NCBI RefSeq assembly: GCF_900129195.1
Contig: NZ_FQUY01000006.1
Span: forward strand, 62,001-126,000
From: Desulforamulus putei DSM 12395
GTDB taxonomy: Bacteria > Bacillota > Desulfotomaculia > Desulfotomaculales > Desulfotomaculaceae
Length of the DNA stretch: 64,000 nt
Direction: 5' to 3'
The notes under the pieces were generated by a model, which made no database searches, was not told where the DNA came from, and saw only the letters and a program-made list of their open reading frames with translations. A program made the translations under genes and the position numbers. This document shows positions 1,433 to 48,950 of this stretch, in pieces. How positions within the stretch are numbered: position 1 is the first letter of the stretch; every line of letters begins with the position of its first letter.

Positions 1433-2638
1433 TTATCTAAGTCCTGCCTTCTTTTCCATCAAGGCCCGTACTTTCAGGGGCAGGCCGAAGAGGTTGATAA
1501 AGCCTGCGGCGTCGGCCTGGTTGTAGACTTCGTCCCGGCCAAAGGTAGACAGTTCTTCGTCATAGAGAGAGTAGGGCGAGGTGGTACCGGCAGGCATAAT
1601 ATTGCCTTTATACAGTTTCAGTTTAACAGTGCCGGTGACGGTGCGCTGGGTACTGTCTACAAAGGCATCCAGGGCTTCCCGCAGGGGAGAAAACCACACG
1701 CCGTCATAAACCAGTTCGGCATAGCGCAGGGCAACTTGTTCTTTATAATGCAGGGTGGCCCGGTCGAGGGTCAGCAGTTCCAATTCATGGTGGGCGTACA
1801 CCAGGATGGTGCCGCCGGGGGTTTCATAAACGCCGCGGGACTTCATGCCCACCAGGCGGTTTTCCACCATGTCCACGATACCGATGCCGTTGGCCCCGCC
1901 GATGGCGTTCAGCTTTTCCAGCAGGCTGACTCCATCCATCCGCTGGCCGTTTAATGATACAGGAATCCCCTTCTCAAAACCGATTTCCACATAGGTGGGC
2001 CGGTCCGGCGCCTTTTCCGGAGGCACGGTCAGCATCAGCATATCGTAGGAAGCAGCATTGGCGGGACTTTCCAGTTCGCCGCCTTCGTGGCTGATGTGCC
2101 AAATGTTGCGGTCCCGGCTGTAGATGCTCTTCTTGGTCACCGGTACGGGGATCCCCCTGGCTTCGGCATAGTCAATGGCATCTTCCCGGGAACGGATGTC
2201 CCACTCCCGCCAGGGAGCGATGACTTTCAAATGGGGGGCCAAGGCCTTAACACCCAGTTCAAAGCGTACCTGGTCGTTACCCTTGCCGGTGGCGCCGTGG
2301 GCCACCGCCACCGCCCCTTCTTTCTCGGCGATTTCCACCAGTTTCTTGGCGATCAACGGCCGGGCAAAGGAGGTGCCCAGCAGGTATTTTCCTTCATAAA
2401 TGGCTCCGGCCTTTAAAGTAGGCCATATGTACTCCTCCACAAATTCCTTGCGCAGGTCTTCGATGTAGATTTTGCTGGCGCCGCTCCGTATGGCCTTTTC
2501 TTCCAGGGGGGCCAGTTCCTCTCCCTGGCCCAGATCGGCGGTCATGGCAATGACTTCATAGCCGTAGTTTTCTTTCAGCCAGGCAATAATAACGGAGGTG
2601 TCCAGCCCCCCGGAGTAGGCCAGTACAACTTTTGGCAT
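1433..2638 (-). CDS. argG: Argininosuccinate synthase
   Basis: Condenses citrulline and aspartate using ATP to give argininosuccinate, the substrate of the next gene. The protein has 401 residues, normal for the family, and opens with the ATP pyrophosphatase loop AYSGGLDTS at residues 7-15. The ATG at 2638 ([11 protein letters not shown]) is preceded by AGGAAGGAG at good spacing; an in-frame extension up to 2815 lacks both homology and a ribosome-binding site. An extended -10 promoter and an ARG-box-like operator lie immediately upstream (2656-2683), so arginine repression of argGH is likely. Confidence 0.98.
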
Positions 2639-2655
2639 GGTTGTTAGCTCCTTCC

Positions 2656-2673
2656 TGTGAATAAATATTCGTT
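2656..2673 (-). promoter_or_regulatory. ARG box (ArgR operator) before argG
   Basis: The plus-strand text TGTGAATAAATATTCGTT matches the ArgR consensus TNTGAATWWWWATTCANW at all but one informative position. It lies between the -10 element and the argG ribosome-binding site, where bound ArgR would block transcription. Confidence 0.75.
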
Positions 2674-2677
2674 TACT

Positions 2678-2686
2678 ATTATAACA
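2678..2686 (-). promoter_or_regulatory. Extended -10 promoter for argGH
   Basis: The minus strand reads TGTTATAAT, an extended -10 element (TG-N-TATAAT) about 40 bases before the argG start. No good -35 hexamer is seen, as expected for an extended -10 promoter. The ARG box lies just downstream, over the expected transcription start. Confidence 0.6.
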
Positions 2687-2830
2687 TAAACAAAGTATTA
2701 CTATTTGTGAACATATGCAATGTTGAGAAAGTTTGGGCCGGTTCTTGACAATAAAAGGAATAAAGGTAATAATGAAAGGGAAAGTTAACTGAAAATGCCG
2801 GTGCGGCCTCACCAAACCTGGGGCTTAATA

Positions 2831-2860
2831 ATCCGTAAGCTATTGGCGTGGCTTACGGAT
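2831..2860 (-). terminator. Perfect 10-bp hairpin after mini-gene
   Basis: ATCCGTAAGC and GCTTACGGAT form a perfect ten-base-pair stem with a ten-base loop. It begins five bases after the stop codon of the holin-like mini-gene. There is only a weak T-rich tail, so it may be an mRNA-stabilising 3' hairpin instead of a strong terminator. Confidence 0.6.
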
Positions 2861-2865
2861 CTTAC

Positions 2866-2958
2866 TTATTTCACCGCAAGGCCGATGACTGCCACAACCA
2901 GAGTTAAAAGAAGGAGTAGAGCTGTGATCATTTGGAGTACCTCTGATGTTGTGACCAC
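2866..2958 (-). CDS. Putative holin-like toxin peptide, 30 aa
   Basis: A 30-codon gene starting at GTG 2958, after AAAGGGGGTG, and ending in TAA. The product opens with TTSEVLQMITALLLLL and continues as one hydrophobic helix ending AVK. This matches the pattern of the putative holin-like toxin family (Hol_Tox) of Firmicutes: a short polar start, an EALxLMI-like motif and a single membrane helix. An internal ATG at 2931 would give a 21-residue form. A perfect hairpin follows the stop, and a promoter overlapping an ARG box precedes the gene. Any toxin or membrane role is inferred from family resemblance. Confidence 0.7.
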   Translation of the reverse strand: MVTTSEVLQMITALLLLLTLVVAVIGLAVK

Positions 2959-3022
2959 TCGCCCCACCCCCTTTCACCCAGGCGGTGAGGCTTTTCACTT
3001 TCAGCTAACATTTCCCATCAGT

Positions 3023-3050
3023 ATTTTACCATATATTGCATAATAAACAA
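3023..3050 (-). promoter_or_regulatory. Sigma-A-like promoter for the mini-gene
   Basis: The minus strand reads TTGTTT (-35, 3045-3050), a 16-base spacer, and TAAAAT (-10, 3023-3028). It points toward the holin-like gene and possibly argG beyond it. The -35 hexamer is inside an ARG-box-like sequence. Confidence 0.55.
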
Positions 3051-3062
3051 TATTTATTCGTA
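3045..3062 (-). promoter_or_regulatory. Second ARG-box-like operator
   Basis: The minus strand reads TACGAATAAATATTGTTT, close to the ArgR consensus with two mismatches. Its core is nearly identical to the box at 2656-2673. It overlaps the -35 of the promoter above, so arginine-dependent repression of this transcript is plausible. Confidence 0.55.
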
Positions 3063-3078
3063 AATAGGAAAATTTCTG

Positions 3079-3131
3079 AAGAAGGCGTCTTGAAAACCTG
3101 TTTAAAAAACCAGGTTCTAAGACGCCTTCTT
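3079..3131 (-). terminator. Terminator after argF
   Basis: A long hairpin with outer arms AAGAAGGCGTCTT and AAGACGCCTTCTT and an inner AACCTG/CAGGTT stem lies 42 bases beyond the argF stop. It marks the end of the argCJBD-carB-argF transcript and may act in both directions. Confidence 0.75.
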
Positions 3132-3172
3132 TCTTTAGAGGAAAGGTTTGGAATGGCAGTGTCTACTTAGTT

Positions 3173-4114
3173 TTACATCAACAGCGCCATGACAGCCTTC
3201 TGGGCATGCAGGCGGTTTTCCGCCTCGTCCCAGACCACCGAGTGGGGCCCGTCAATAATCTCTGCAGTGACTTCCTCGCCCCGGTGGGCCGGCAGGCAGT
3301 GCAGGAAGATGAAATCGCTTTTGGCATGGGCGCACAGGGCTTCATTCACCTGGTACGAAGCAAAGACCTTTTCCCGTTCCTTCTGCTCCGCTTCCTGACC
3401 CATGCTGGCCCAAACATCGGTGACGATGACATCCGCGTCCTTAACCGCCTCCACCGGGTCGGTCACCACTTCGATTTTGGCGCCGGTGGCCTGGGCATCC
3501 TGTTTGGCCAGTTCCACCACCCAGGACCTAGGCCGGTAGCCCTCCGGGGAAGCCACGCTGATATCCATGCCTACCTTGGCGCAGCCATACAACAGCGAAT
3601 GGGCGATATTGTTACCGTCCCCCACATAAGCCAGCTTCAGGCCCGCCAGCTTCCCTTTGTGTTCTTTAATGGTCAGCAGGTCCGCCAGGATCTGGCAGGG
3701 GTGGGTCAGGTCGGTGAGCCCGTTGATAACCGGAACATCGGCATATTGGGCCAGTTCCTCCACCTCGCTCTGGTCAAAGGTGCGGATCATGATGCCGTCC
3801 ACCATGCGGGACAATACCCTGGCGGTATCCGCCACCGATTCCCCCCGCCCCATCTGGATGTCCTTGGGGCTTAAGAATAAAGCGTAACCGCCCAACTGGT
3901 ACATGCCCACCTCAAAGCTCACTCTGGTACGAGTGGAACTCTTTTGAAAGATCATGGCCAGGGTTTTTCCCTGCAGATAGGGATGAGGGATGCCGGCCCT
4001 TTGCAGGCCTTTCAGCCGGGCGGCCTCCTCCAGAATCAGGTTGACTTCTTCCGTCGTCAAATCATGCAGGGTCAGTAAATCCCTGCCCTTTAGACTTTTC
4101 TTCAGTTCTTCCAT
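3173..4114 (-). CDS. argF: Ornithine carbamoyltransferase
   Basis: Transfers the carbamoyl group from carbamoyl phosphate to ornithine, giving citrulline. The 313-residue protein shows the carbamoyl-phosphate-binding STRTR motif at residues 60-64, HPCQ at 138-141 and the ornithine-loop HCLPAHRGEE near residue 270. The length is normal. It starts 21 bases after the carB stop, so carbamoyl phosphate synthesis and use are co-transcribed. A strong hairpin follows it. Confidence 0.98.
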   Translation of the reverse strand: MEELKKSLKGRDLLTLHDLTTEEVNLILEEAARLKGLQRAGIPHPYLQGKTLAMIFQKSSTRTRVSFEVGMYQLGGYALFLSPKDIQMGRGESVADTARVLSRMVDGIMIRTFDQSEVEELAQYADVPVINGLTDLTHPCQILADLLTIKEHKGKLAGLKLAYVGDGNNIAHSLLYGCAKVGMDISVASPEGYRPRSWVVELAKQDAQATGAKIEVVTDPVEAVKDADVIVTDVWASMGQEAEQKEREKVFASYQVNEALCAHAKSDFIFLHCLPAHRGEEVTAEIIDGPHSVVWDEAENRLHAQKAVMALLM

Positions 4115-4135
4115 CTATGGCATCCTCTCCGGGCA

Positions 4136-7100
4136 TTAACCTGCGTTTTGGGCAGGCCTTTTTTCATTGAGAAATTCGGTAAAGCGATCCAGGGAGACCG
4201 GCGCCACCGGGTCGCCCTGCAACAGTTCGTGCAGCACACCGGCCATGGCCCTGGCGGTATCCAGGGAAGTTAAGCAGGGTACCTTATACTCCGCTGCCAG
4301 ACGGCGCAGGCGGAAGCCGGGTCGCCCGGGCACCTTGCCCCGGGTGGGGGTATTGATCACCATTTGGACACCGCCGGAGCGCACCAGGGCCAAGGGATCT
4401 TCGGTGCCCACCACCGGCAGCCCGGCGGAGGCCAGGGCGGCAGCGGTATTCATGGTGGCGTACAGCTTAAAGCCCAGGTTGGCGTACTGGCGGGCCACCG
4501 CCACGGCCTCCAGCTTATCCCGGTCCGCCACCGAGAAAAGGACGGCACCGCTTTTGGCCACCTTCATTCCGGCGGAGACAATGGCCTTGTAGAAGGCATG
4601 GGAGAAGGATTTGTCAACCCCCATCACCTCGCCGGTGGATTTCATTTCCGGTCCCAGGGAGGTTTCCACCAGCCCCAGTTTTTCAAAGGAGAATACCGGC
4701 GCCTTGACAGTAATATGATCGGACACCGGACCCAGTCCGGGGAGGTAGCCCAGGTCCGCCAGGCTTTTACCCAGCATGCAGCGGGTGGCGGTTTGTACCA
4801 TGGGAACCCCGGTGACCTTGGAGAGAACCGGTACGGTCCGGGAAGCCCGGGGGTTCACTTCCAGCACAAAGACCTCGCCGTCGCCCACCACGTATTGAAT
4901 ATTCATCAGCCCGCAGATCTTTAAGGCCCTGCCGATGCGCAGGGTATAGTCCACCACCTGCTCCATTTCCCTCTGGCTCAGGCTCTGGGGAGGATAGACG
5001 GCAATGCTGTCCCCGGAGTGAACCCCCGCCCGCTCGATGTGTTCCATAATGCCGGGGATAAAGATATTCTGGCCGTCACCGATGGCGTCCACTTCCACCT
5101 CTTTGCCCCGGACGTATTTGTCCACCAGCACCGGGTGCCTGGGGGACACTTGTACCGCGCTGGACATGTATTTCAGCAGCTGGTCGTCATTGTAGACAAT
5201 CTCCATGGCCCGGCCGCCCAGCACGTAGGAGGGGCGCACCAGCACCGGAAAGCCCAGGTCTGCCGCAATTTGCCGGGCTTGCTCCACAGTGGTGGCGGTT
5301 TTCCCCTCGGTCTGGGGGATGCCCAGGCTTTTTAGAAGTTTTTCAAATTTCTCCCGGTCTTCGGCGGCGTCAATGCCCTCCACCGGGGTACCCAGGATGT
5401 TCACGCCCAGTTCCGCCAGGTCGCCGGCTAGGTTGATGGCGGTCTGCCCGCCAAACTGGACAATGACACCCAGAGGCTTCTCTTTATCAATGATGTTCAT
5501 GACGTCTTCCACCGTCAAGGGCTCGAAATACAACTTGTCGGCGGTATCAAAGTCGGTGGAAACGGTCTCGGGGTTGTTGTTGATAATAATGGCCTCAATG
5601 TTTTCCTTCTGCAGGCCCCAGACCGAGTGCACCGAGCAGTAGTCAAATTCCACGCCCTGCCCGATGCGGATGGGGCCGGAGCCCAGCACAACCACTTTGG
5701 GCCGCCCGGACACTGCCACCTCATCCTCGGCATCATAGGTGGAATAGTAATAGGGTGTGGAGGCTTCAAACTCGGCGGCACAGGTGTCCACCACCTTGTA
5801 GGTGGGCAAAATACCGTATTGCTTGCGCAGTTCACGGATCTCTTTCATAGATTTGCCGCACAGGCGCCCGATGTGGGCATCGGAGAAGCCGCAGACTTTG
5901 GCCCGGCGCAGCAGTTCTTGATCGGGAGGGCCGCCGGCGTTCCGGATTTGCTGTTCCAGCACCACCAGGTCCTTGATCTTTTCCAGGAACCAGTAGTCGA
6001 TGCCGGTCAGCTGCTGAACTTCCTTCAGGGTCCAGTAGCGGCGGAAGGCCTCGGCCACCACAAACAACCGCTCGTCATCCGGCCGGTTCAGTTTGCTTTC
6101 CAGCTCCATCTCGGTCCAACTGGCGCTGCCTTTGATTTGCAGGCTGTCCACGCCGATCTCCAGGGAACGCACCGCCTTCATCAAAGCCCCTTCAAAGGTA
6201 CGGTCAATGGCCATGACCTCGCCGGTGGCCTTCATCTGGGTGCCCAGGGTCCGGTCGCCGCTGGCGAACTTGTCAAAGGGCCAGCGGGGAATTTTAACCA
6301 CCACGTAATCCAGGGTGGGTTCAAAGCAGGCCGTGGTCTTGCCTGTAACCGGGTTGGTAATTTCATCAAGATTCAGCCCAATGGCAATTTTGGCTGCCAA
6401 TTTGGCGATGGGGTAGCCGGTGGCCTTGGAGGCCAGGGCCGAGGAACGGCTAACCCGGGGGTTTACCTCGATAACGATATAGTTCATGCTGTGGGGGTCC
6501 AGGGCAAACTGCACGTTGCAGCCCCCGGCCACCTTGAGGGCCCGGATGATCTTCAGGGCGGCACTGCGCAGCATTTGATATTCCCGGTCGGACAGGGTCT
6601 GGGAGGGCGCCACCACGATGCTGTCCCCGGTATGCACCCCCACCGGGTCAATGTTTTCCATGTTGCAGATGGTAATGCAGTTGTCCGCATTGTCCCGCAT
6701 CACTTCATATTCGATTTCTTTCCAGCCGGCCACACTGCGCTCCAGCAGCACCTGGTTGATCATGCTCATCCTGAGGCCCCGGTGGCAGATGGCGGTCAAT
6801 TCCTTCTCATCCTTGGCGATGCCGCCGCCGGTGCCCCCCAGGGTATAAGCCGGGCGGACAATGAGCGGGTAGCCGATCTTGTTGGCAAATTCAATACATT
6901 CCTCCACCGTGCTGGCGATGGTGCTTTCCGGGATGGGCTCCCCGATTTCCAGCATGGTGGCCCGGAAAAGCTCCCGGTCTTCGGCCTTTTTAATGGTTTC
7001 CAGAGAGGTGCCCAGCAGTTCCACGCCGTACTTTTCCAGGATGCCGCGCTCAGCCAGTTCCACCGCCATATTTAGACCGGTCTGGCCGCCTAGGGTGGGC

Positions 7101-7360
7101 AAAATGCCGTCCGGCCGTTCTTTCGCAATAATTTTTTCAATGCTTTCCCAGGTTAAAGGTTCGATGTATACAACATCGGCAATATCACTGTCGGTCATAA
7201 TGGTGGCCGGGTTGGAATTAACCAGCACCACTTTGATGCCCTCTTCCCGCAGCGCTTTGCAAGCCTGGGTTCCGGCATAGTCAAACTCCGCCGCCTGGCC
7301 GATGATGATGGGACCGGAACCGATTACCAGTACCGTTTTGATGTCCTTCCGTTTGGGCAT
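4136..7360 (-). CDS. carB: Carbamoyl-phosphate synthase large subunit
   Basis: Makes carbamoyl phosphate from ammonia, bicarbonate and two ATP, supplying argF. The 1074-residue protein contains two ATP-grasp halves (about residues 130-340 and 680-870), a middle oligomerisation region and a C-terminal MGS-like regulatory domain from about 935. The ATG at 7360 (MPKRKDIK) is preceded by AGGAGGT, which overlaps the argD stop codon, so translation is probably coupled. The glutaminase subunit carA, often placed just before carB in Firmicutes arginine operons, is not here, so the amidotransferase subunit must come from elsewhere. Confidence 0.98.
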
Positions 7361-7370
7361 CGTGTACCTC

Positions 7371-8564
7371 CTACAATACATTCTTCATTGCTTGATCCAG
7401 GATTGTCATTGCCTGGTCCACTTCTTCCCTGGTGACGATCAAAGGCGGCAGGAATCGCAACACATTGCCGTTGGTGCAGTTGATGAGCAGTCCCTGCTCC
7501 TGGCAGCGGGCGACGATGTCCTTGCCTTCTATGGCCAGCTCCATCCCCAGCATCAGACCTGCTCCCCGGACTTCTTTAACACAGGAATATTTCTGCGCCA
7601 GGGCATTTAAACGGTTTCTGAAGTATTCGCCCGTCCTCTGGGCATTTTCCAGCAGCCCATCTTGTAAAATAGCTTCCATGGCCGCTAGGGCAGCGGTGCA
7701 GGCCAGGGGGTTGCCCCCAAAGGTGCTGGCGTGATCGCCCGGTTGGAAGGCCCTTGCCACATGGTCCTTGGCCAGCATGGCCCCGATGGGGAAGCCGCCG
7801 CCCAGGGCCTTGGCCAGGGTAATGATATCCGGCTCCACTTGATAGTGCTGGTAGGCCAAAAATTTGCCGGTACGCCCAAGGCCGCACTGGACTTCGTCAA
7901 AAATGAGGAGCAGCCCCTTTTCCTGGCATAACTCCGCCACGCCCGCCAGGTATTCCGGCCGGGCCGGAATAACGCCCCCTTCGCCCTGCACCGGTTCCAG
8001 CATCACCGCGCAGGTGTGAGGGCCAATGCTTTGCTCCAGGGCTGCCAAATCGTTGTAGGGTACATATTTGAAGCCCTGGGGCAGGGGATCAAACCCCTTT
8101 TGATATTTGGTCTGGCCGGTGGCAGTGACAGCCGCCAGGGTACGGCCATGGAAGGAATTGGTGGCAGTAATAATCTCATACTTATCCGGGCCGAGGTTTA
8201 ATTTGGCATACTTGCGGGCCAGTTTAATGGCCCCCTCGTTGGCTTCGGCGCCGCTGTTGCAGAAAAAGACCTTCCCGGCACAGGAATTTTCCACCAGTAT
8301 TTTAGCCAGTTTTACCTGGGGCTCAATCCAGTAGAGGTTTGAGCAGTGCAGCAAGGTCCTGGCCTGCCGGCAGACGGCCTCCGCTACCTTGGGGTGAGCG
8401 TGCCCTAAGGAATTCACCGCCAGCCCCCCCACAAAATCTAAATACCGCTTGCCATCGGCGTCCCAAACCCAGCACCCTTCCCCTTTAACAAGAGCCATGG
8501 GTAACCGCCCATATGTATTCATCACATACTGTTGACCCATGGCCAATATCTCTTGGTTATTCAT
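7371..8564 (-). CDS. argD: Acetylornithine aminotransferase
   Basis: A pyridoxal-phosphate enzyme converting N-acetylglutamate semialdehyde to N-acetylornithine with glutamate as amino donor. The 397-residue, class-III aminotransferase sequence has the cofactor-binding lysine region [13 protein letters not shown] near residue 250 and the [12 protein letters not shown] motif before it. It sits between argB and carB. The stop overlaps the carB ribosome-binding site. Confidence 0.97.
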
Positions 8565-43387: not shown

Positions 43388-44485
43388 TTAAAGCGGACAA
43401 GCACCACCACAACGCTCGCAACCTTTGGTTCTTTGGCCGAAAATACATGTACTATGTTCCCCTCTGTATTTTGCAATCTCCAGATCAACCGCATCGTCTT
43501 TAAGTATATGAATATCAATAATATGCGCAGCAATGCGAGCTGCTTTGACTGCCTCTATGGTAGATTCTATAGTTGGTGTTCCTCCTGTATGTTCTTCACG
43601 AGTAACAGCAGCAAGTATATGCGCACATCCTTCAAGACCGAGCAATGTTGCGCCAATGGCGGCAGACACATGGTCCATTCCAATTGCAATATCTGTAGGA
43701 ATTGGTCCAAGAGGCATCACAGGAAAATTACCCTCTCGCAGTATGGAAGCTATTTTTTTAATATCTTCTGGCCTTGCATGGCCCGGGGATTCAATAATAA
43801 CCCCAACACCATCCTTTGCAATCTTTTTAGCTAAATCTAGCTGAAATCTAATTTCTTTTTGTTGAGCCTCGTCATTGGAGTCAAAAATATTTGCCGAACG
43901 AAAAGTCGTCCCAATACTTATTACCGTCCCGTATTTTTTAGCCGCAGATATTAATTCCGGTAATATAGTTAAATAAACATTATCTTGCTTCCACCCTTTG
44001 ATTGCGGCATCCTGAAGAACAATCCCTCCGCCACGAGAGGTACAAGGTACCAAACGTTTTTGAGACAGTTCAAAAAGCTCTTTTGTTGGGGTTGGGTGGA
44101 TGGTTATGATTCCTACACCCTGTTCCATTTGTTCTAGGCAAATATCAAGAAGTTCATCTGAGGAGATTCCCCTGTTCCCAAATCTTACTACATAAACCGG
44201 AACAGTCGCAGCAATACAACCAGTCTCCATAATAATCTGTAACCATAAGGGTTTTTTATTTCTTAATCTTATTATACTCAAGTCGCTTATTATATCTGGA
44301 CCATCTAACATGGAGCTTAATAATTCAATTTTTCGTAATTGTAACTTATAACAATCCTCGTTATTTGCTCCTATTAAGGCTGCCACTAAGGTTTTTCTCT
44401 TTCTACCCGCCTCGATCCACCCATTTTTAAATCTCAGTTTAACTATAGATGTATCCTTTATCGATGTAGAATTTTTTCTATACAT
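43388..44485 (-). CDS. Divergent ThiC-family (phosphomethylpyrimidine synthase-like) protein
   Basis: A 365-residue homologue of ThiC, the radical SAM enzyme that makes the thiamine pyrimidine from AIR. Family landmarks are visible but altered: EQMEQGVGIITIHP, TSRGGGI, FRSANIFDSNDEAQ, ESPGHARP (usually EGPGHVP), LGPIPTDIAIGMDHV and REEHTGG. The two histidines that bind metal in ThiC are kept. The C-terminal cluster motif is CERCGGAC (CX2CX3C) where ThiC has CX2CX4C. It lacks the N-terminal region of standard ThiC (usually 430 residues or more). Its start overlaps the end of the SIR2-SLOG gene by 28 bases. Codon use is A/T-rich. A true thiamine role is doubtful, and the substrate is unknown. 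Confidence 0.75.
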   Translation of the reverse strand: MYRKNSTSIKDTSIVKLRFKNGWIEAGRKRKTLVAALIGANNEDCYKLQLRKIELLSSMLDGPDIISDLSIIRLRNKKPLWLQIIMETGCIAATVPVYVVRFGNRGISSDELLDICLEQMEQGVGIITIHPTPTKELFELSQKRLVPCTSRGGGIVLQDAAIKGWKQDNVYLTILPELISAAKKYGTVISIGTTFRSANIFDSNDEAQQKEIRFQLDLAKKIAKDGVGVIIESPGHARPEDIKKIASILREGNFPVMPLGPIPTDIAIGMDHVSAAIGATLLGLEGCAHILAAVTREEHTGGTPTIESTIEAVKAARIAAHIIDIHILKDDAVDLEIAKYRGEHSTCIFGQRTKGCERCGGACPL

Positions 44486-45816
44486 GAAATAACATCCTCA
44501 GTTTTAACACAAAAACGTTTTGCCTTTTCAAAATAATCCTTATCAACTTGTTCCAAAAAGTCCGATATTTCCCGGTCCCCAAGAATTTGTTTCATAAATT
44601 CAGTCTCTTTTTGTGCTACCGGAATTATTTTGCATTTAAATGCTCTGGCAATTTCAAACTCTACAGAAGTACCAATCCCCCCGTCAAATACAACCACTAC
44701 TTGGGTGGCATTAAAAAGCTTGGCCCTCAATCTTTTTAACTCTGGGATTAACTTCGGATTATCTGAAAAATCAGGGTTAGCTGCATAAGGATTAGGGAAA
44801 GTGTGGAGTCGTTCAGTAATGTCCATTTTCCGTTCTATACATTCTTCTGTAAATGACGCCACAACATCGCTCCCTATCCCAGAAGATTGACCACTGTGTA
44901 ATACTATATTTTTTATATTTGCAAGACGTTTACCAATCTCCCGTGCCATCGGGTCACTCACTTTATGTGACCCCGTACAATAAACTGTATTACCACGAGA
45001 TTTACTACTAACTTCAAATAAAACCTCTTTTAATTCATCGTAATGATCAATTAATACACAATTTATACCAAAACGCCTTAAGTCTTTACACCAAAGAAGC
45101 TGTCTTTTTTCTTCTTCTTTATTTTTTTTATTTCCTTTAATCCTGTCCAAGACCATAAAGTGTTCTTGAGTTGCTCTTTGACAAAGACGTCTAGCTTCCA
45201 CCATAATGTTTCTTAAATTAGGATCTCTGTAACTATATCCAATAAATAAAAATGATTTGGTAGATAAATCGTTTTCTAATCTTTTTGCAGTAGCTGGTCG
45301 ATTTACCAGAAAGTCTTCATAGTCTTCTTGAGTTATAACTAATTCGTTCTGAGGTGAACTACTAATGCAACCGTGCATTTTAATGAGTTCAATTTGATGC
45401 TTTAAGACTGGTCGTGAAATAGCACCATCATTATTCTTAACGACCAAATCAAAATTTCTAAACGCCTTTTCGAGAAGTGTGTCATAATTTGTGGTCCAAA
45501 TGGTTGATATTCTAGTAAGAGTGAGTGCCTGATGGTATATATTTAGGGCGTATTCTTTATTTAAACAACGAATAATTTCATTAATTAGCGGTCCTCTATT
45601 TCCTGCATATAAGTTAACTATATATTGAGCAATCAAGGGTAGCTCGTCATCTCTTTTAATTTGTATGCCCAAATTTTCAGAAAAAGGTTGAAGTAACCCA
45701 TACCAATCTACACCACAGGACTCCTTTGATATTCCGCTTCCAACAAAGATTGCACCACGGTTTTCATATAAAGCTTTTGAAAACCTATTTATTAAATACT
45801 TCTTATCACAAATCAC
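44458..45816 (-). CDS. SIR2-SLOG protein resembling Thoeris ThsA
   Basis: A 452-residue protein. Residues 1 to about 270 are a SIR2-like NADase domain (FVGSGIS at 24-30, WTTNYD with Asn110, KMHGC with His148, FIGYSYRDPN at 191-200). Asn110 and His148 correspond in position and motif to the ThsA catalytic residues. Residues from about 276 are a SLOG domain (VYCTGSHKVSDP, SGIGSDVV, FDGGIGTSVEFEIA), which in ThsA binds the signal nucleotide. ThsA has about 476 residues and works with a TIR protein; none is seen here. GTG 45816 follows GGAGGAGGG at six bases. Defence by NAD depletion is inferred. Confidence 0.8.
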   Translation of the reverse strand: MICDKKYLINRFSKALYENRGAIFVGSGISKESCGVDWYGLLQPFSENLGIQIKRDDELPLIAQYIVNLYAGNRGPLINEIIRCLNKEYALNIYHQALTLTRISTIWTTNYDTLLEKAFRNFDLVVKNNDGAISRPVLKHQIELIKMHGCISSSPQNELVITQEDYEDFLVNRPATAKRLENDLSTKSFLFIGYSYRDPNLRNIMVEARRLCQRATQEHFMVLDRIKGNKKNKEEEKRQLLWCKDLRRFGINCVLIDHYDELKEVLFEVSSKSRGNTVYCTGSHKVSDPMAREIGKRLANIKNIVLHSGQSSGIGSDVVASFTEECIERKMDITERLHTFPNPYAANPDFSDNPKLIPELKRLRAKLFNATQVVVVFDGGIGTSVEFEIARAFKCKIIPVAQKETEFMKQILGDREISDFLEQVDKDYFEKAKRFCVKTEDVISCIEKILHR

Positions 45817-46119: not shown

Positions 46120-46938
46120 CTAAAACTTAACATTTTTTAATAATCTTAACGCCTCATTTTTGGTTATTATTTTCCCTTTACAGTCTTGATGCTGTAACTC
46201 ATTCTCAGGGCAATATCCAAGGTTAACGCAATTGGGGCCAGCATTTACAAAAAGCTCCGGAGCTGTGTTCTTGCAAATATGTAACATTTTATTGGCTAAG
46301 TCTCTAATTTCTGTTTGTGCTTTTTTGCAACAACGAATACTAAACCAGTCGTTCAAAGCATGAGCATTCATGCCAATTAAAGCTTTAAATTCTGTAGCCT
46401 GTGGCTTAAGATATCTTAGTTCTTCTTCCTGAAACCCTTGCCGAACCCCCATCTCATACCACAGTTCTAACAATTCTAATATCTCGTCTACCCCAACTGA
46501 ATAAGCAACCTCCTTTTCCTCTGAGGACAAATAATTCCGCAAAGGAGTTCCGTCACTTAAAGTCAGAGAATCTATTGGTATTTTATATATTATCCTGTTG
46601 TCTTCAATTCCTTTTGGTATGACTACGTCAAAGGATCTTTTTCCGCCCTTGTTTGTCCTACCAGTTTTAATCATATAAGAGGCTAACCTTTTACGAACCA
46701 ATTGAACTTCTGTAACCCTAGCGTATCCTTCAATGCCAAAAAGAAAAAAATCAAACTCTAACGCTGCTTTATGTCCGCTATTTACAATTTTTAAAACTAA
46801 TTCCTTGGAATAAGGTGAAGCAATAATCTCATCTAATGACCTTTCTGAACTGACAAACCTTGCAGCAATATCAGTATATACCCGGCCCCCGCCAGCAATT
46901 AACCGAACTTTACCTTCGCCTACATACTTTTTGTTCAT
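46120..46938 (-). CDS. thyX: Divergent ThyX-like flavin-dependent thymidylate synthase
   Basis: A 272-residue ThyX homologue. ThyX makes dTMP from dUMP with FAD and methylenetetrahydrofolate. Visible are SGHKAALEFDFFLFGIEG, the motif VRKRLASYMIKTGR (82-94) and the second half ATEFKALIGMNAHALNDWFS followed by AQTEIRDLA. The usual RHR triplet is RKR (82-84) and the later S-x-R is T-x-R. The C-terminus has a GPNCVNLGYCPE cysteine pair. ATG 46938 follows GGTGAGG. It is A/T-rich like the two downstream genes and might be core or part of the island. Confidence 0.75.
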   Translation of the reverse strand: MNKKYVGEGKVRLIAGGGRVYTDIAARFVSSERSLDEIIASPYSKELVLKIVNSGHKAALEFDFFLFGIEGYARVTEVQLVRKRLASYMIKTGRTNKGGKRSFDVVIPKGIEDNRIIYKIPIDSLTLSDGTPLRNYLSSEEKEVAYSVGVDEILELLELWYEMGVRQGFQEEELRYLKPQATEFKALIGMNAHALNDWFSIRCCKKAQTEIRDLANKMLHICKNTAPELFVNAGPNCVNLGYCPENELQHQDCKGKIITKNEALRLLKNVKF

Positions 46939-47062
46939 CCGCTGCCTCACCCCAAAAAATTTAGTGTTACTGTAAGTAATAGATACTCTTTTAGTTACAA
47001 CGTTAATTTGCAGAGTTCAAGTTTGAAACCGTCCCCGTTGAAAATTTCATTTCATAATAATC

Positions 47063-47473
47063 CTAGTTGTTGCCTGTTTTTGTTATTGCCCGTATCGCCA
47101 GGTCGACAATTTCCCTCACCCTGTCCTGTTTGCCCTGTAAGTACAGGTAGCCGAGCAGGGCCTCTAGGGCGGTGGCGTGGCGGTACTCCACGATATCGGC
47201 GCTCCTGGGGGGCGTGCCGGACTTGGCGTTGCGGCCCCGGCGGACAACCGCCATTTCTTCTTCGGAAAGTTTATCCTCCAGGGCGAAAAGCGCTTTCGCC
47301 TGGGCGCCGGCACGCACATACTTTACGGCTTCCCGGTGGAGACGGTTTACTTTAGTGAATCCTTGTCCCACCAGGAACTGCCGAATGGCCAGTTCATAAA
47401 CGGCATCCCCTATATAGGCAAGGACCAAGCTGGGCAATTCTTCAGGTTTTTGATTTTTTGCCAATTTATCCAT
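47063..47473 (-). CDS. mrnC: Mini-ribonuclease III
   Basis: A catalytic-domain-only RNase III that matures 23S rRNA ends. The 136-residue frame (from ATG 47473) has LAYIGDAVYEL and RRGRNAKSGTPPRS, and EALLGYLYL with the second acidic site. No double-stranded-RNA-binding domain follows, as expected. The start is uncertain: TTG 47485 follows AGGGG closely, and GTG 47512 would overlap cysS by 26 bases. It is downstream of cysS, the conserved order. Confidence 0.93.
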   Translation of the reverse strand: MDKLAKNQKPEELPSLVLAYIGDAVYELAIRQFLVGQGFTKVNRLHREAVKYVRAGAQAKALFALEDKLSEEEMAVVRRGRNAKSGTPPRSADIVEYRHATALEALLGYLYLQGKQDRVREIVDLAIRAITKTGNN

Positions 47474-47486
47474 GTATTTTAACAAG

Positions 47487-48950
47487 TTACCCCTGCTTCT
47501 TCCACCGGACACCCTGGGGTGTGTCTTCCAAAATAATCCCCAGTTCCTTTAAACCGTCACGGATGGTGTCGGCGGTGGCCCAATCTTTTTTACTGCGGGC
47601 CTCCTGGCGGATCTTAATGATCAGCTGGATCAGTCCCTCGGTCAGTTTATCATCGGCGCCTGCAGCGTCAATCAACAACCTGCCGGTCATTTTGTCTTCC
47701 TTTAAAATACCCAGCACACAGTTAAAGTCTTTGACCAGGGCGTGTGCTTTATCCAGCAGTTTTTTCTCTTCCGAAGTCACTTTACCGCCCAGTTTGCCCA
47801 CAAAGATATTGATTTCTTTAGCCAGTTCAAAGAACACCGAGATGGCTAGGGCGGTGTTAAAATCGTCCTCCATGGCCTTTTCAAATTCTAACCGGAGGGT
47901 CGCCAGTTTTTCCTCCAGGCCGTCGGCAACAGGTTTTTCTCTCTCTTCTTGATAAACGGGCAGTTCCATTGCCTCGTAAAGCAAGCGAAGGGCAGTTTTA
48001 ATGCGGTCCAAACCTTTGCCCGCCATGACAAGCTTTTCATCATCAAAGTCCAGGGGGCTGCGGTAGTGGGTGGAAAGCAAATACCAGCGGACCACATCCG
48101 GGGGGAATTTGGCCAAAATCTCCCTGACTAAAAAGAAGTTCCCCAGGGACTTGGACATTTTTTCCTGGTTTACGGTAATAAAGCCGTTATGCATCCAGTA
48201 ACGGGCAAAGGGCTCCCCGCAGGCTGCTTCGGATTGGGCAATTTCATTTTCGTGGTGAGGAAAGATCAAATCAAAACCCCCGCCGTGAATATCAAAGCCG
48301 CTACCTAAATACTTTTCAGCCATGGCGGAGCACTCGATGTGCCAGCCCGGGCGTCCCGGTCCCCAGGGGCTGTCCCAGCTGGGCTCGCCGGGCTTGGCTG
48401 CTTTCCACAGGGCAAAGTCCATGGGGTCCTTCTTTCTGGGATCCACCTCCACCCTGGCTCCGGCCTGCATGTCTTCCAGGCTCCGGCCCGATAGTTTACC
48501 GTAGGCAGGGAAGCTCCGAACAGCAAAATAAACGTCCCCGTCAACGGCGTAGGCATGGCCCTGCTGCTCCAGCTTCTTGATCAGGTCGATGATTTCCGGA
48601 ATATGTTCAGATACTTTGGGATGTGTGTCCGCCCGCATAACATTCAGGGCATCTGCATCTGCAAAAAACTCCCTGATGTATTTTTGCGCCAACTCCAGCG
48701 GGTCCGTTTTTTCTTCCCTGGCCCGGTTAATAATTTTATCATCTACGTCTGTAAAGTTCTGAACAAAATTTACTTGATAGCCTTTATAAATAAAATACCT
48801 TCTGACGGTGTCAAAAAACACCAGCGGCCGGGCATTGCCAAGATGAATAAAGTTGTAAGTGGTGGGCCCGCAAACATACATGCTGACTTGTCCTTTGTCT
48901 CTGGGAACAAACTCTTCCTTTGTTTTAGTCAGGGTATTATAAATTTGCAT
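47487..48950 (-). CDS. cysS: Cysteinyl-tRNA synthetase
   Basis: Charges tRNA-Cys. The 487-residue class I enzyme has the HLGN form of the HIGH motif near residue 35, zinc-binding cysteines ([25 protein letters not shown] region) and KMSKSLGNF near 265. ATG 48950 follows GGAGGGGG, and the last base of cysE is shared with it, so the two are coupled. Confidence 0.97.

What the first reader, a model, noticed from the sequence alone, without database searches (positions are those of the whole stretch)
43388..44485. ThiC paralogue with altered active-site and cluster motifs
ThiC landmarks are present, but EGPGH is ESPGH, the cluster motif is CX2CX3C where ThiC has CX2CX4C, and the N-terminal region is shortened to about 365 residues in all. 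The metal-binding histidines seem kept. This suggests a radical SAM reaction on a substrate other than AIR.
Basis: partly seen in the sequence, partly recalled or inferred. Interest (0 to 1): 0.72.

Follow-up and report, generated by a model that had tools for sequence, protein, structure and literature searches.

The report
ThiC-like enzyme paired with defence NADase
A distant relative of the vitamin-B1 enzyme ThiC sits in a transferred gene block next to a ThsA-type antiviral NAD-destroying protein, in the place of that protein's usual signal-making partner, which suggests a radical-SAM enzyme used in bacterial antiviral defence.

Summary
The ORF at 43388-44485 (-) is a real, distant ThiC paralogue (ThiCL). 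It lies on its own very long branch outside ThiC and the BzaA/BzaB-type paralogues; the genome has a separate canonical thiC. ESPGH, the kept histidines and the short N-terminus are confirmed. The CX2CX3C point is not distinctive: the genome's own ThiC has CX2CX3C. Phosphate, SAM and metal ligands are kept; the AIR base contacts Asp383 and Tyr449 (AtThiC numbering) become Thr and Met.

ThiCL overlaps by 28 bp a SIR2-SLOG gene of the Thoeris ThsA type, with catalytic Asn/His kept; no ThsB is detected. The pair recurs intact in Syntrophomonas wolfei subsp. methylbutyratica and G525, and decayed in G017 and G097, always between mrnC and rlmB, behind a low-GC foreign thymidylate synthase gene (thyX' or thyA, with or without folA).

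Best reading: a Thoeris-like abortive-infection module in which ThiCL replaces ThsB, acting on a nucleotide whose product, or consumption, switches the ThsA-like NADase. The association and horizontal transfer are shown; defence, signal and substrate are inferred.

The parts
43388..44485 (-). ThiCL: ThiC-like radical SAM protein, 365 aa, ESPGH, C-terminal CERCGGAC
   Evidence: PF01964 4e-50; model matches AtThiC Z 40.8 over 333 residues; own clade in tree
44458..45816 (-). ThsA-like SIR2-STALD (SLOG) NADase-type protein, 452 aa, GTG start; overlaps ThiCL by 28 bp
   Evidence: PADLOC ThsA 6e-82, PF13289 and PF18185; model matches SeThsA/BcThsA Z 27-28; catalytic Asn and His kept
46120..46950 (-). 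ThyX': the only thymidylate synthase gene found in this genome, foreign type, RKR(x7)TGR in place of RHR(x7)S
   Evidence: PF02511 97 bits; 30-32% identical to ThyX of congeners at the same site, 69-86% to G097; GC3 33%; alignment
44458..44485 (-). 28-bp overlap of the 3' end of the ThsA-like gene and the 5' end of ThiCL (suggests translational coupling)
   Evidence: ORF coordinates; 25-bp overlap in L003 and L076
42431..43177 (-). rlmB, conserved flank of the cassette
   Evidence: 81-87% identical in congeners
47063..47512 (-). mrnC (mini-RNase III), conserved flank of the cassette
   Evidence: synteny in congeners and order

Best explanation
A horizontally transferred two-gene module resembling type I Thoeris, in which the TIR signal-maker ThsB is replaced by a ThiC-like radical SAM enzyme. 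Inferred working: during infection ThiCL acts on a 5'-phosphorylated nucleotide (not AIR), using a [4Fe-4S] cluster, SAM and the second metal site as ThiC does. Its product, or a change in its substrate pool, is read by the SLOG domain of the ThsA-like protein, whose SIR2 domain then degrades NAD and aborts infection. The thymidylate synthase gene in front is carried with the module and displaces the host thyX. Whether it has a mechanistic part (dUMP/dTMP as the watched pool) or only anchors the block at an essential gene is open. Shown: gene pairing, overlap, conserved ligands, recurrence, foreign composition, displacement and co-decay. Inferred: defence function, NADase activity, substrate, signal.
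For: ThsA-like neighbour with SIR2 catalytic Asn112/His152 equivalents and SLOG Phe357, Arg371, Glu403 equivalents. 25-28 bp gene overlap in all three intact copies. No ThsB_TIR in G000, G017, G525 or the S. wolfei genome, whereas a ThsA with ThsB next door does exist in the order (G102). ThiCL keeps AtThiC Tyr286, His322, Ser342, Arg343, Arg386, Glu422, Glu489 and both metal His, but changes Asp383 and Tyr449. ThiC fold, Z 40.8. The module recurs at one site in four other genomes. Thymidylate synthase, ThsA and ThiCL share low GC3 (25-33% in the window) against flanks at 55-63%. G525 keeps a C-terminal remnant of a thyX next to rlmB. In G017 both ThsA and ThiCL are frameshifted and in G097 both are internally deleted, while the synthase gene is kept. 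Precedent: Kongming, where a nucleotide-modifying enzyme leads to dITP that activates a SIR2 NADase (PMC12948488).
Against: No activity or phage test exists. Only three intact copies. SLOG Arg371 and Glu403 equivalents are kept, so the ligand may still be ADP-ribose-like, which a ThiC-type enzyme would not obviously make. A TIR protein outside PF08937 elsewhere in the genome was not excluded. The ThiCL cluster-binding tail is modelled at low confidence (pLDDT about 50).
Confidence: 0.5

Rival explanations
1. The ThsA-like protein and ThiCL form one defence unit, but ThiCL is a sensor or guarded decoy rather than a signal synthase: it binds a phage or nucleotide cue and releases the NADase by direct contact.
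For: Overlapping genes in all three intact copies and joint decay in two others; the substrate pocket is altered while the fold is kept.
Against: All SAM, metal and cysteine ligands are kept in 3 of 3 orthologues across families, which a pure binding protein would not need.
Confidence: 0.2
2. ThiCL is a metabolic enzyme tied to the thymidylate synthase and folate genes (a salvage or antimetabolite step), and the SIR2-SLOG protein regulates or guards that pathway; not phage defence.
For: Thymidylate synthase lies in front of the pair in all five cases, with folA in two; it is the only thymidylate synthase gene found in G000, and the only thyA in G017 and G496.
Against: ThyX' stands alone at the site in four genomes, so the synthase does not need the pair. 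ThsA-type SIR2-SLOG proteins with solved structures are Thoeris effectors.
Confidence: 0.17
3. ThiCL still makes HMP-P (or a benzimidazole) from AIR and travels with a defence gene by chance.
For: Phosphate, ribose (Glu422), SAM and metal contacts are kept; Asn228 to Leu also occurs in the BzaB group.
Against: Asp383 to Thr and Tyr449 to Met in 3 of 3 against 0 of 61; separate canonical thiC in both genomes checked; the overlap with ThsA is conserved.
Confidence: 0.08

Closest known systems
ThiC (phosphomethylpyrimidine synthase, PF01964; AtThiC 4s26, CcThiC 3epm)
   Same: Same barrel fold over 333 residues (Z 40.8); same metal histidines, SAM glutamate, phosphate ligands and three C-terminal cysteines
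   Different: About 27-31% identity, far below equivalog cut-offs; AIR base contacts changed; short N-terminus and linker; separate clade; paired with a ThsA-like gene
BzaA/BzaB-type ThiC paralogues of anaerobes (TIGR04386)
   Same: ThiC-fold paralogues beside a canonical thiC; Asn228 also replaced by Leu in the BzaB group
   Different: Bza rows keep Asp383 and Tyr/Phe449 and group with ThiC; ThiCL lies outside and scores 114-135 bits against the TIGR04386 cut-off of 700
Type I Thoeris (ThsA SIR2-SLOG plus ThsB TIR)
   Same: ThsA-type effector with catalytic Asn and His and SLOG Arg371/Glu403 equivalents; two-gene arrangement
   Different: No ThsB at the locus and no PF08937 in the genome; ThiCL in its place; SLOG Lys388 and about ten neighbouring residues absent
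Kongming (KomABC, dITP-activated SIR2 NADase)
   Same: Logic only: a nucleotide-modifying enzyme feeds a SIR2 NADase; KomC is the next structural group after ThsA
   Different: No KomA or KomB gene in this cassette; the sensing SLOG domain is fused to SIR2 here

Membership tests
ThiC (phosphomethylpyrimidine synthase) | Score above equivalog cut-off (TIGR00190 460, NF009895 410) | tested here: not met
   153 and 170 bits; orthologues 162-189
ThiC (phosphomethylpyrimidine synthase) | ThiC barrel fold with C-terminal three-cysteine motif and two metal histidines | tested here: met
   Z 40.8 to 4s26; cysteines and His kept
ThiC (phosphomethylpyrimidine synthase) | AIR base and ribose contacts Asn228, Asp383, Tyr449 | tested here: not met
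   Leu, Thr, Met in 3 of 3 (residues from PMC4389238)
ThiC (phosphomethylpyrimidine synthase) | Conversion of AIR to HMP-P | not testable with these tools
   needs an enzyme assay
BzaA/BzaB/BzaF | Groups with Bza-type rows in a tree and passes TIGR04386 | tested here: not met
   separate starred clade; 114 bits against 700. BzaF reference sequences were not included
Thoeris type I | ThsA effector: SIR2 plus SLOG (STALD) domains, catalytic Asn112 and His152 | tested here: met
Thoeris type I | ThsB TIR protein encoded with ThsA | tested here: not met
   no TIR gene among the neighbours; PF08937 absent in four genomes
Thoeris type I | SLOG ligand residues Arg371, Lys388, Glu403 | tested here: inconclusive
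   Arg371 and Glu403 equivalents kept, Lys388 and the following loop absent (alignment by sequence only)
Thoeris type I | Activation by 1''-3' gcADPR, NAD depletion, phage protection | not testable with these tools
   needs biochemistry and phage assays

The most novel reading that the evidence does not exclude
A radical SAM enzyme of the ThiC family generates a new kind of nucleotide second messenger (perhaps from a thymidylate-pathway deoxynucleotide), replacing the TIR enzyme of Thoeris and activating a SIR2-SLOG NADase.
Probability: 0.33. Interest if true: 0.92.

Novelty: new variant of a known kind. Interest (0 to 1): 0.7.

Why it matters
If right, it extends nucleotide-signal immunity to a complex radical-SAM chemistry, gives the ThiC family a role outside cofactor synthesis, and supplies a compact two-gene system in which the missing signal could be identified directly. 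It also points to the mrnC-thyX-rlmB site as a place where thymidylate synthase genes are exchanged together with conflict-type cassettes.

Tried and rejected
CX2CX3C as evidence of a new enzyme: rejected, since canonical ThiC of the same genome has it. Asn228 to Leu as a sign of a deoxyribose substrate: rejected as proof, since BzaB rows share it. Loss of SLOG Arg371: first suspected, then withdrawn after placing the residue with PMC7272460 and PMC10022894; the Arg is kept. Viral, phage and plasmid copies of ThiCL: none beyond about 35% identity, i.e. ordinary ThiC. Insertion repeats or att-like ends of the cassette: nothing convincing. ThsA/ThiCL remnants in the ThyX'-only genomes: none; ThyX' is followed closely by rlmB. 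Literature link between Thoeris and ThiC or radical SAM, or between SLOG defence and thymidylate synthase: none found in the held library.

Full report
The observation. The ORF is real: 365 aa at 43388-44485 on the minus strand, PF01964 at 4e-50, yet 153-170 bits where the ThiC equivalog models ask for 460 or 410. ESPGH, the kept metal histidines and the short N-terminus are as described. The cluster spacing is not a departure: the genome's own canonical ThiC reads CTMCGDFC, also CX2CX3C, as do all canonical ThiC rows of the order in which the motif was found.

Canonical thiC. A second, canonical gene lies at G000:C17:25466-26725 with 686 bits. The Syntrophomonas genome that holds an orthologue also has one.

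Phylogeny. In a maximum-likelihood tree of 64 rows (quick method; the careful search did not finish) the three intact ThiCL proteins form one starred clade on a branch of about ten changes per column, outside ThiC and both Bza-type groups. One Bza-type group passes the TIGR04386 (BzaB) cut-off; its tandem neighbour scores below it and is called BzaA-like here (the labels BzaA and BzaB printed are the wrong way round). The branch is long, so only separateness is claimed, not the exact attachment point.

Active site. Using the contacts reported for AtThiC (PMC4389238), ThiCL keeps the phosphate ligands Tyr286, His322, Ser342, Arg343 and Arg386, the ribose ligand Glu422, the SAM ligand Glu489 and the metal ligands His426 and His490. 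It changes Asn228 to Leu (shared with BzaB), Asp383 to Thr and Tyr449 to Met. Asp383 is Asp in 61 of 61 ThiC and Bza-type rows, and position 449 is Tyr or Phe in all of them. The AlphaFold2 model (pLDDT 85) matches AtThiC with imidazole ribonucleotide and SAH at Z 40.8, 2.4 A over 333 residues; the next family, IspG, is at Z 20. Inference: an active radical SAM enzyme on a phosphorylated nucleoside that is not AIR.

Partner gene. Upstream and overlapping by 28 bp lies a SIR2-STALD protein (44458-45816): PADLOC ThsA 6e-82, PF13289 and PF18185, model Z 27-28 to SeThsA and BcThsA. Asn and His equivalent to BcThsA Asn112 and His152, which are needed for NAD cleavage (PMC7272460), are kept in all three intact copies. 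In the SLOG domain Phe357, Arg371 and Glu403 equivalents are kept, Ser288 is Thr, and Lys388 with about ten following residues is missing. No ThsB_TIR occurs in the window genome, G017, G525 or the S. wolfei genome, while an ordinary ThsA with a TIR gene next door is present in G102 of the same order.

Recurrence and mobility. ThiCL and the ThsA-like gene occur together in Syntrophomonas wolfei subsp. methylbutyratica (L003), G525 (L076), G017 (L037) and as a remnant in G097 (L072), each time between mrnC and rlmB. No other intact ThiCL was found in the 113 genomes of the order, 398 genomes drawn from the phylum, or the 63 genomes of the Syntrophomonas order, nor in IMG/VR. In the order this site normally holds thyX: of 103 other genomes surveyed, 59 have the resident thyX, 34 none near rlmB, 4 a ThyX' alone, 4 other ThyX types and 2 the cassette. 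The window's ThyX is 30-32% identical to that of its congeners but 69-86% identical to the one in G097. L003, L076 and L037 carry thyA instead (83-86% alike), with folA in L003 and L076. L076 still has a C-terminal piece of a ThyX next to rlmB, which shows displacement. Synthase, ThsA-like and ThiCL genes share low GC3 (25-33% in the window, flanks 55-63%; the same pattern in L003). The window genome has this one thyX and no thyA; G017 and G496 have one thyA each, the one in the cassette.

Joint fate. ThiCL evolves under constraint (dN 0.21, dS 1.33 between L003 and L076). In G017 both ThsA and ThiCL are frameshifted while thyA, mrnC and rlmB read through (sequencing error cannot be fully excluded). 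In G097 ThsA has lost residues 75-369 and ThiCL residues 35-319. The pair lives and dies together; the synthase gene survives without it.

Mechanism. Most likely the pair is a Thoeris-like abortive-infection module with ThiCL in the place of ThsB. Shown: pairing, domain make-up, retained catalytic residues, changed base pocket, horizontal transfer. Inferred: defence, NADase activity, that ThiCL supplies or withdraws the SLOG ligand, and any role for thymidylate. Kongming, where a nucleotide-modifying enzyme leads to dITP and SIR2 activation, shows that such logic exists (PMC12948488). The held library contains no paper linking Thoeris with ThiC or radical SAM chemistry; it lacks most subscription journals.

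Limits.

Noticed in passing
L073 (G096:C1:1972000-1979500), 2383-5766: At the same mrnC-rlmB site G096 carries another nucleotide-themed block: a double-ThyX fusion (470 aa, PF02511 twice), a 309-aa protein that looks like a phosphoribosyltransferase, a weak HIT-domain protein and a small MazG-like protein. The phosphoribosyltransferase and MazG readings are by eye only.
   Followed up: partly
window 46120-46950: The ThyX' subfamily has RKR(x7)TGR where ThyX has RHR(x7)S, shared by five genomes; it is the only thymidylate synthase gene found in the window genome. Its activity as ThyX deserves a test.
   Followed up: partly
L003 3223-4068 and L076 7564-8412: The cassette thyA genes are much closer (dS 0.52) than the folA and ThiCL genes beside them (dS 1.1-1.3), which hints at separate exchange or codon constraint.
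   Followed up: no
L142 (G087), 5263-7914: A DEAD-box-type helicase of about 880 aa sits between the resident thyX and rlmB in G087.
   Followed up: no
L160, L162: Other ThsA-like genes of the order: G102 has a TIR partner next door; the G018 copy (L162) shows none among its neighbours in the stretch held.
   Followed up: no
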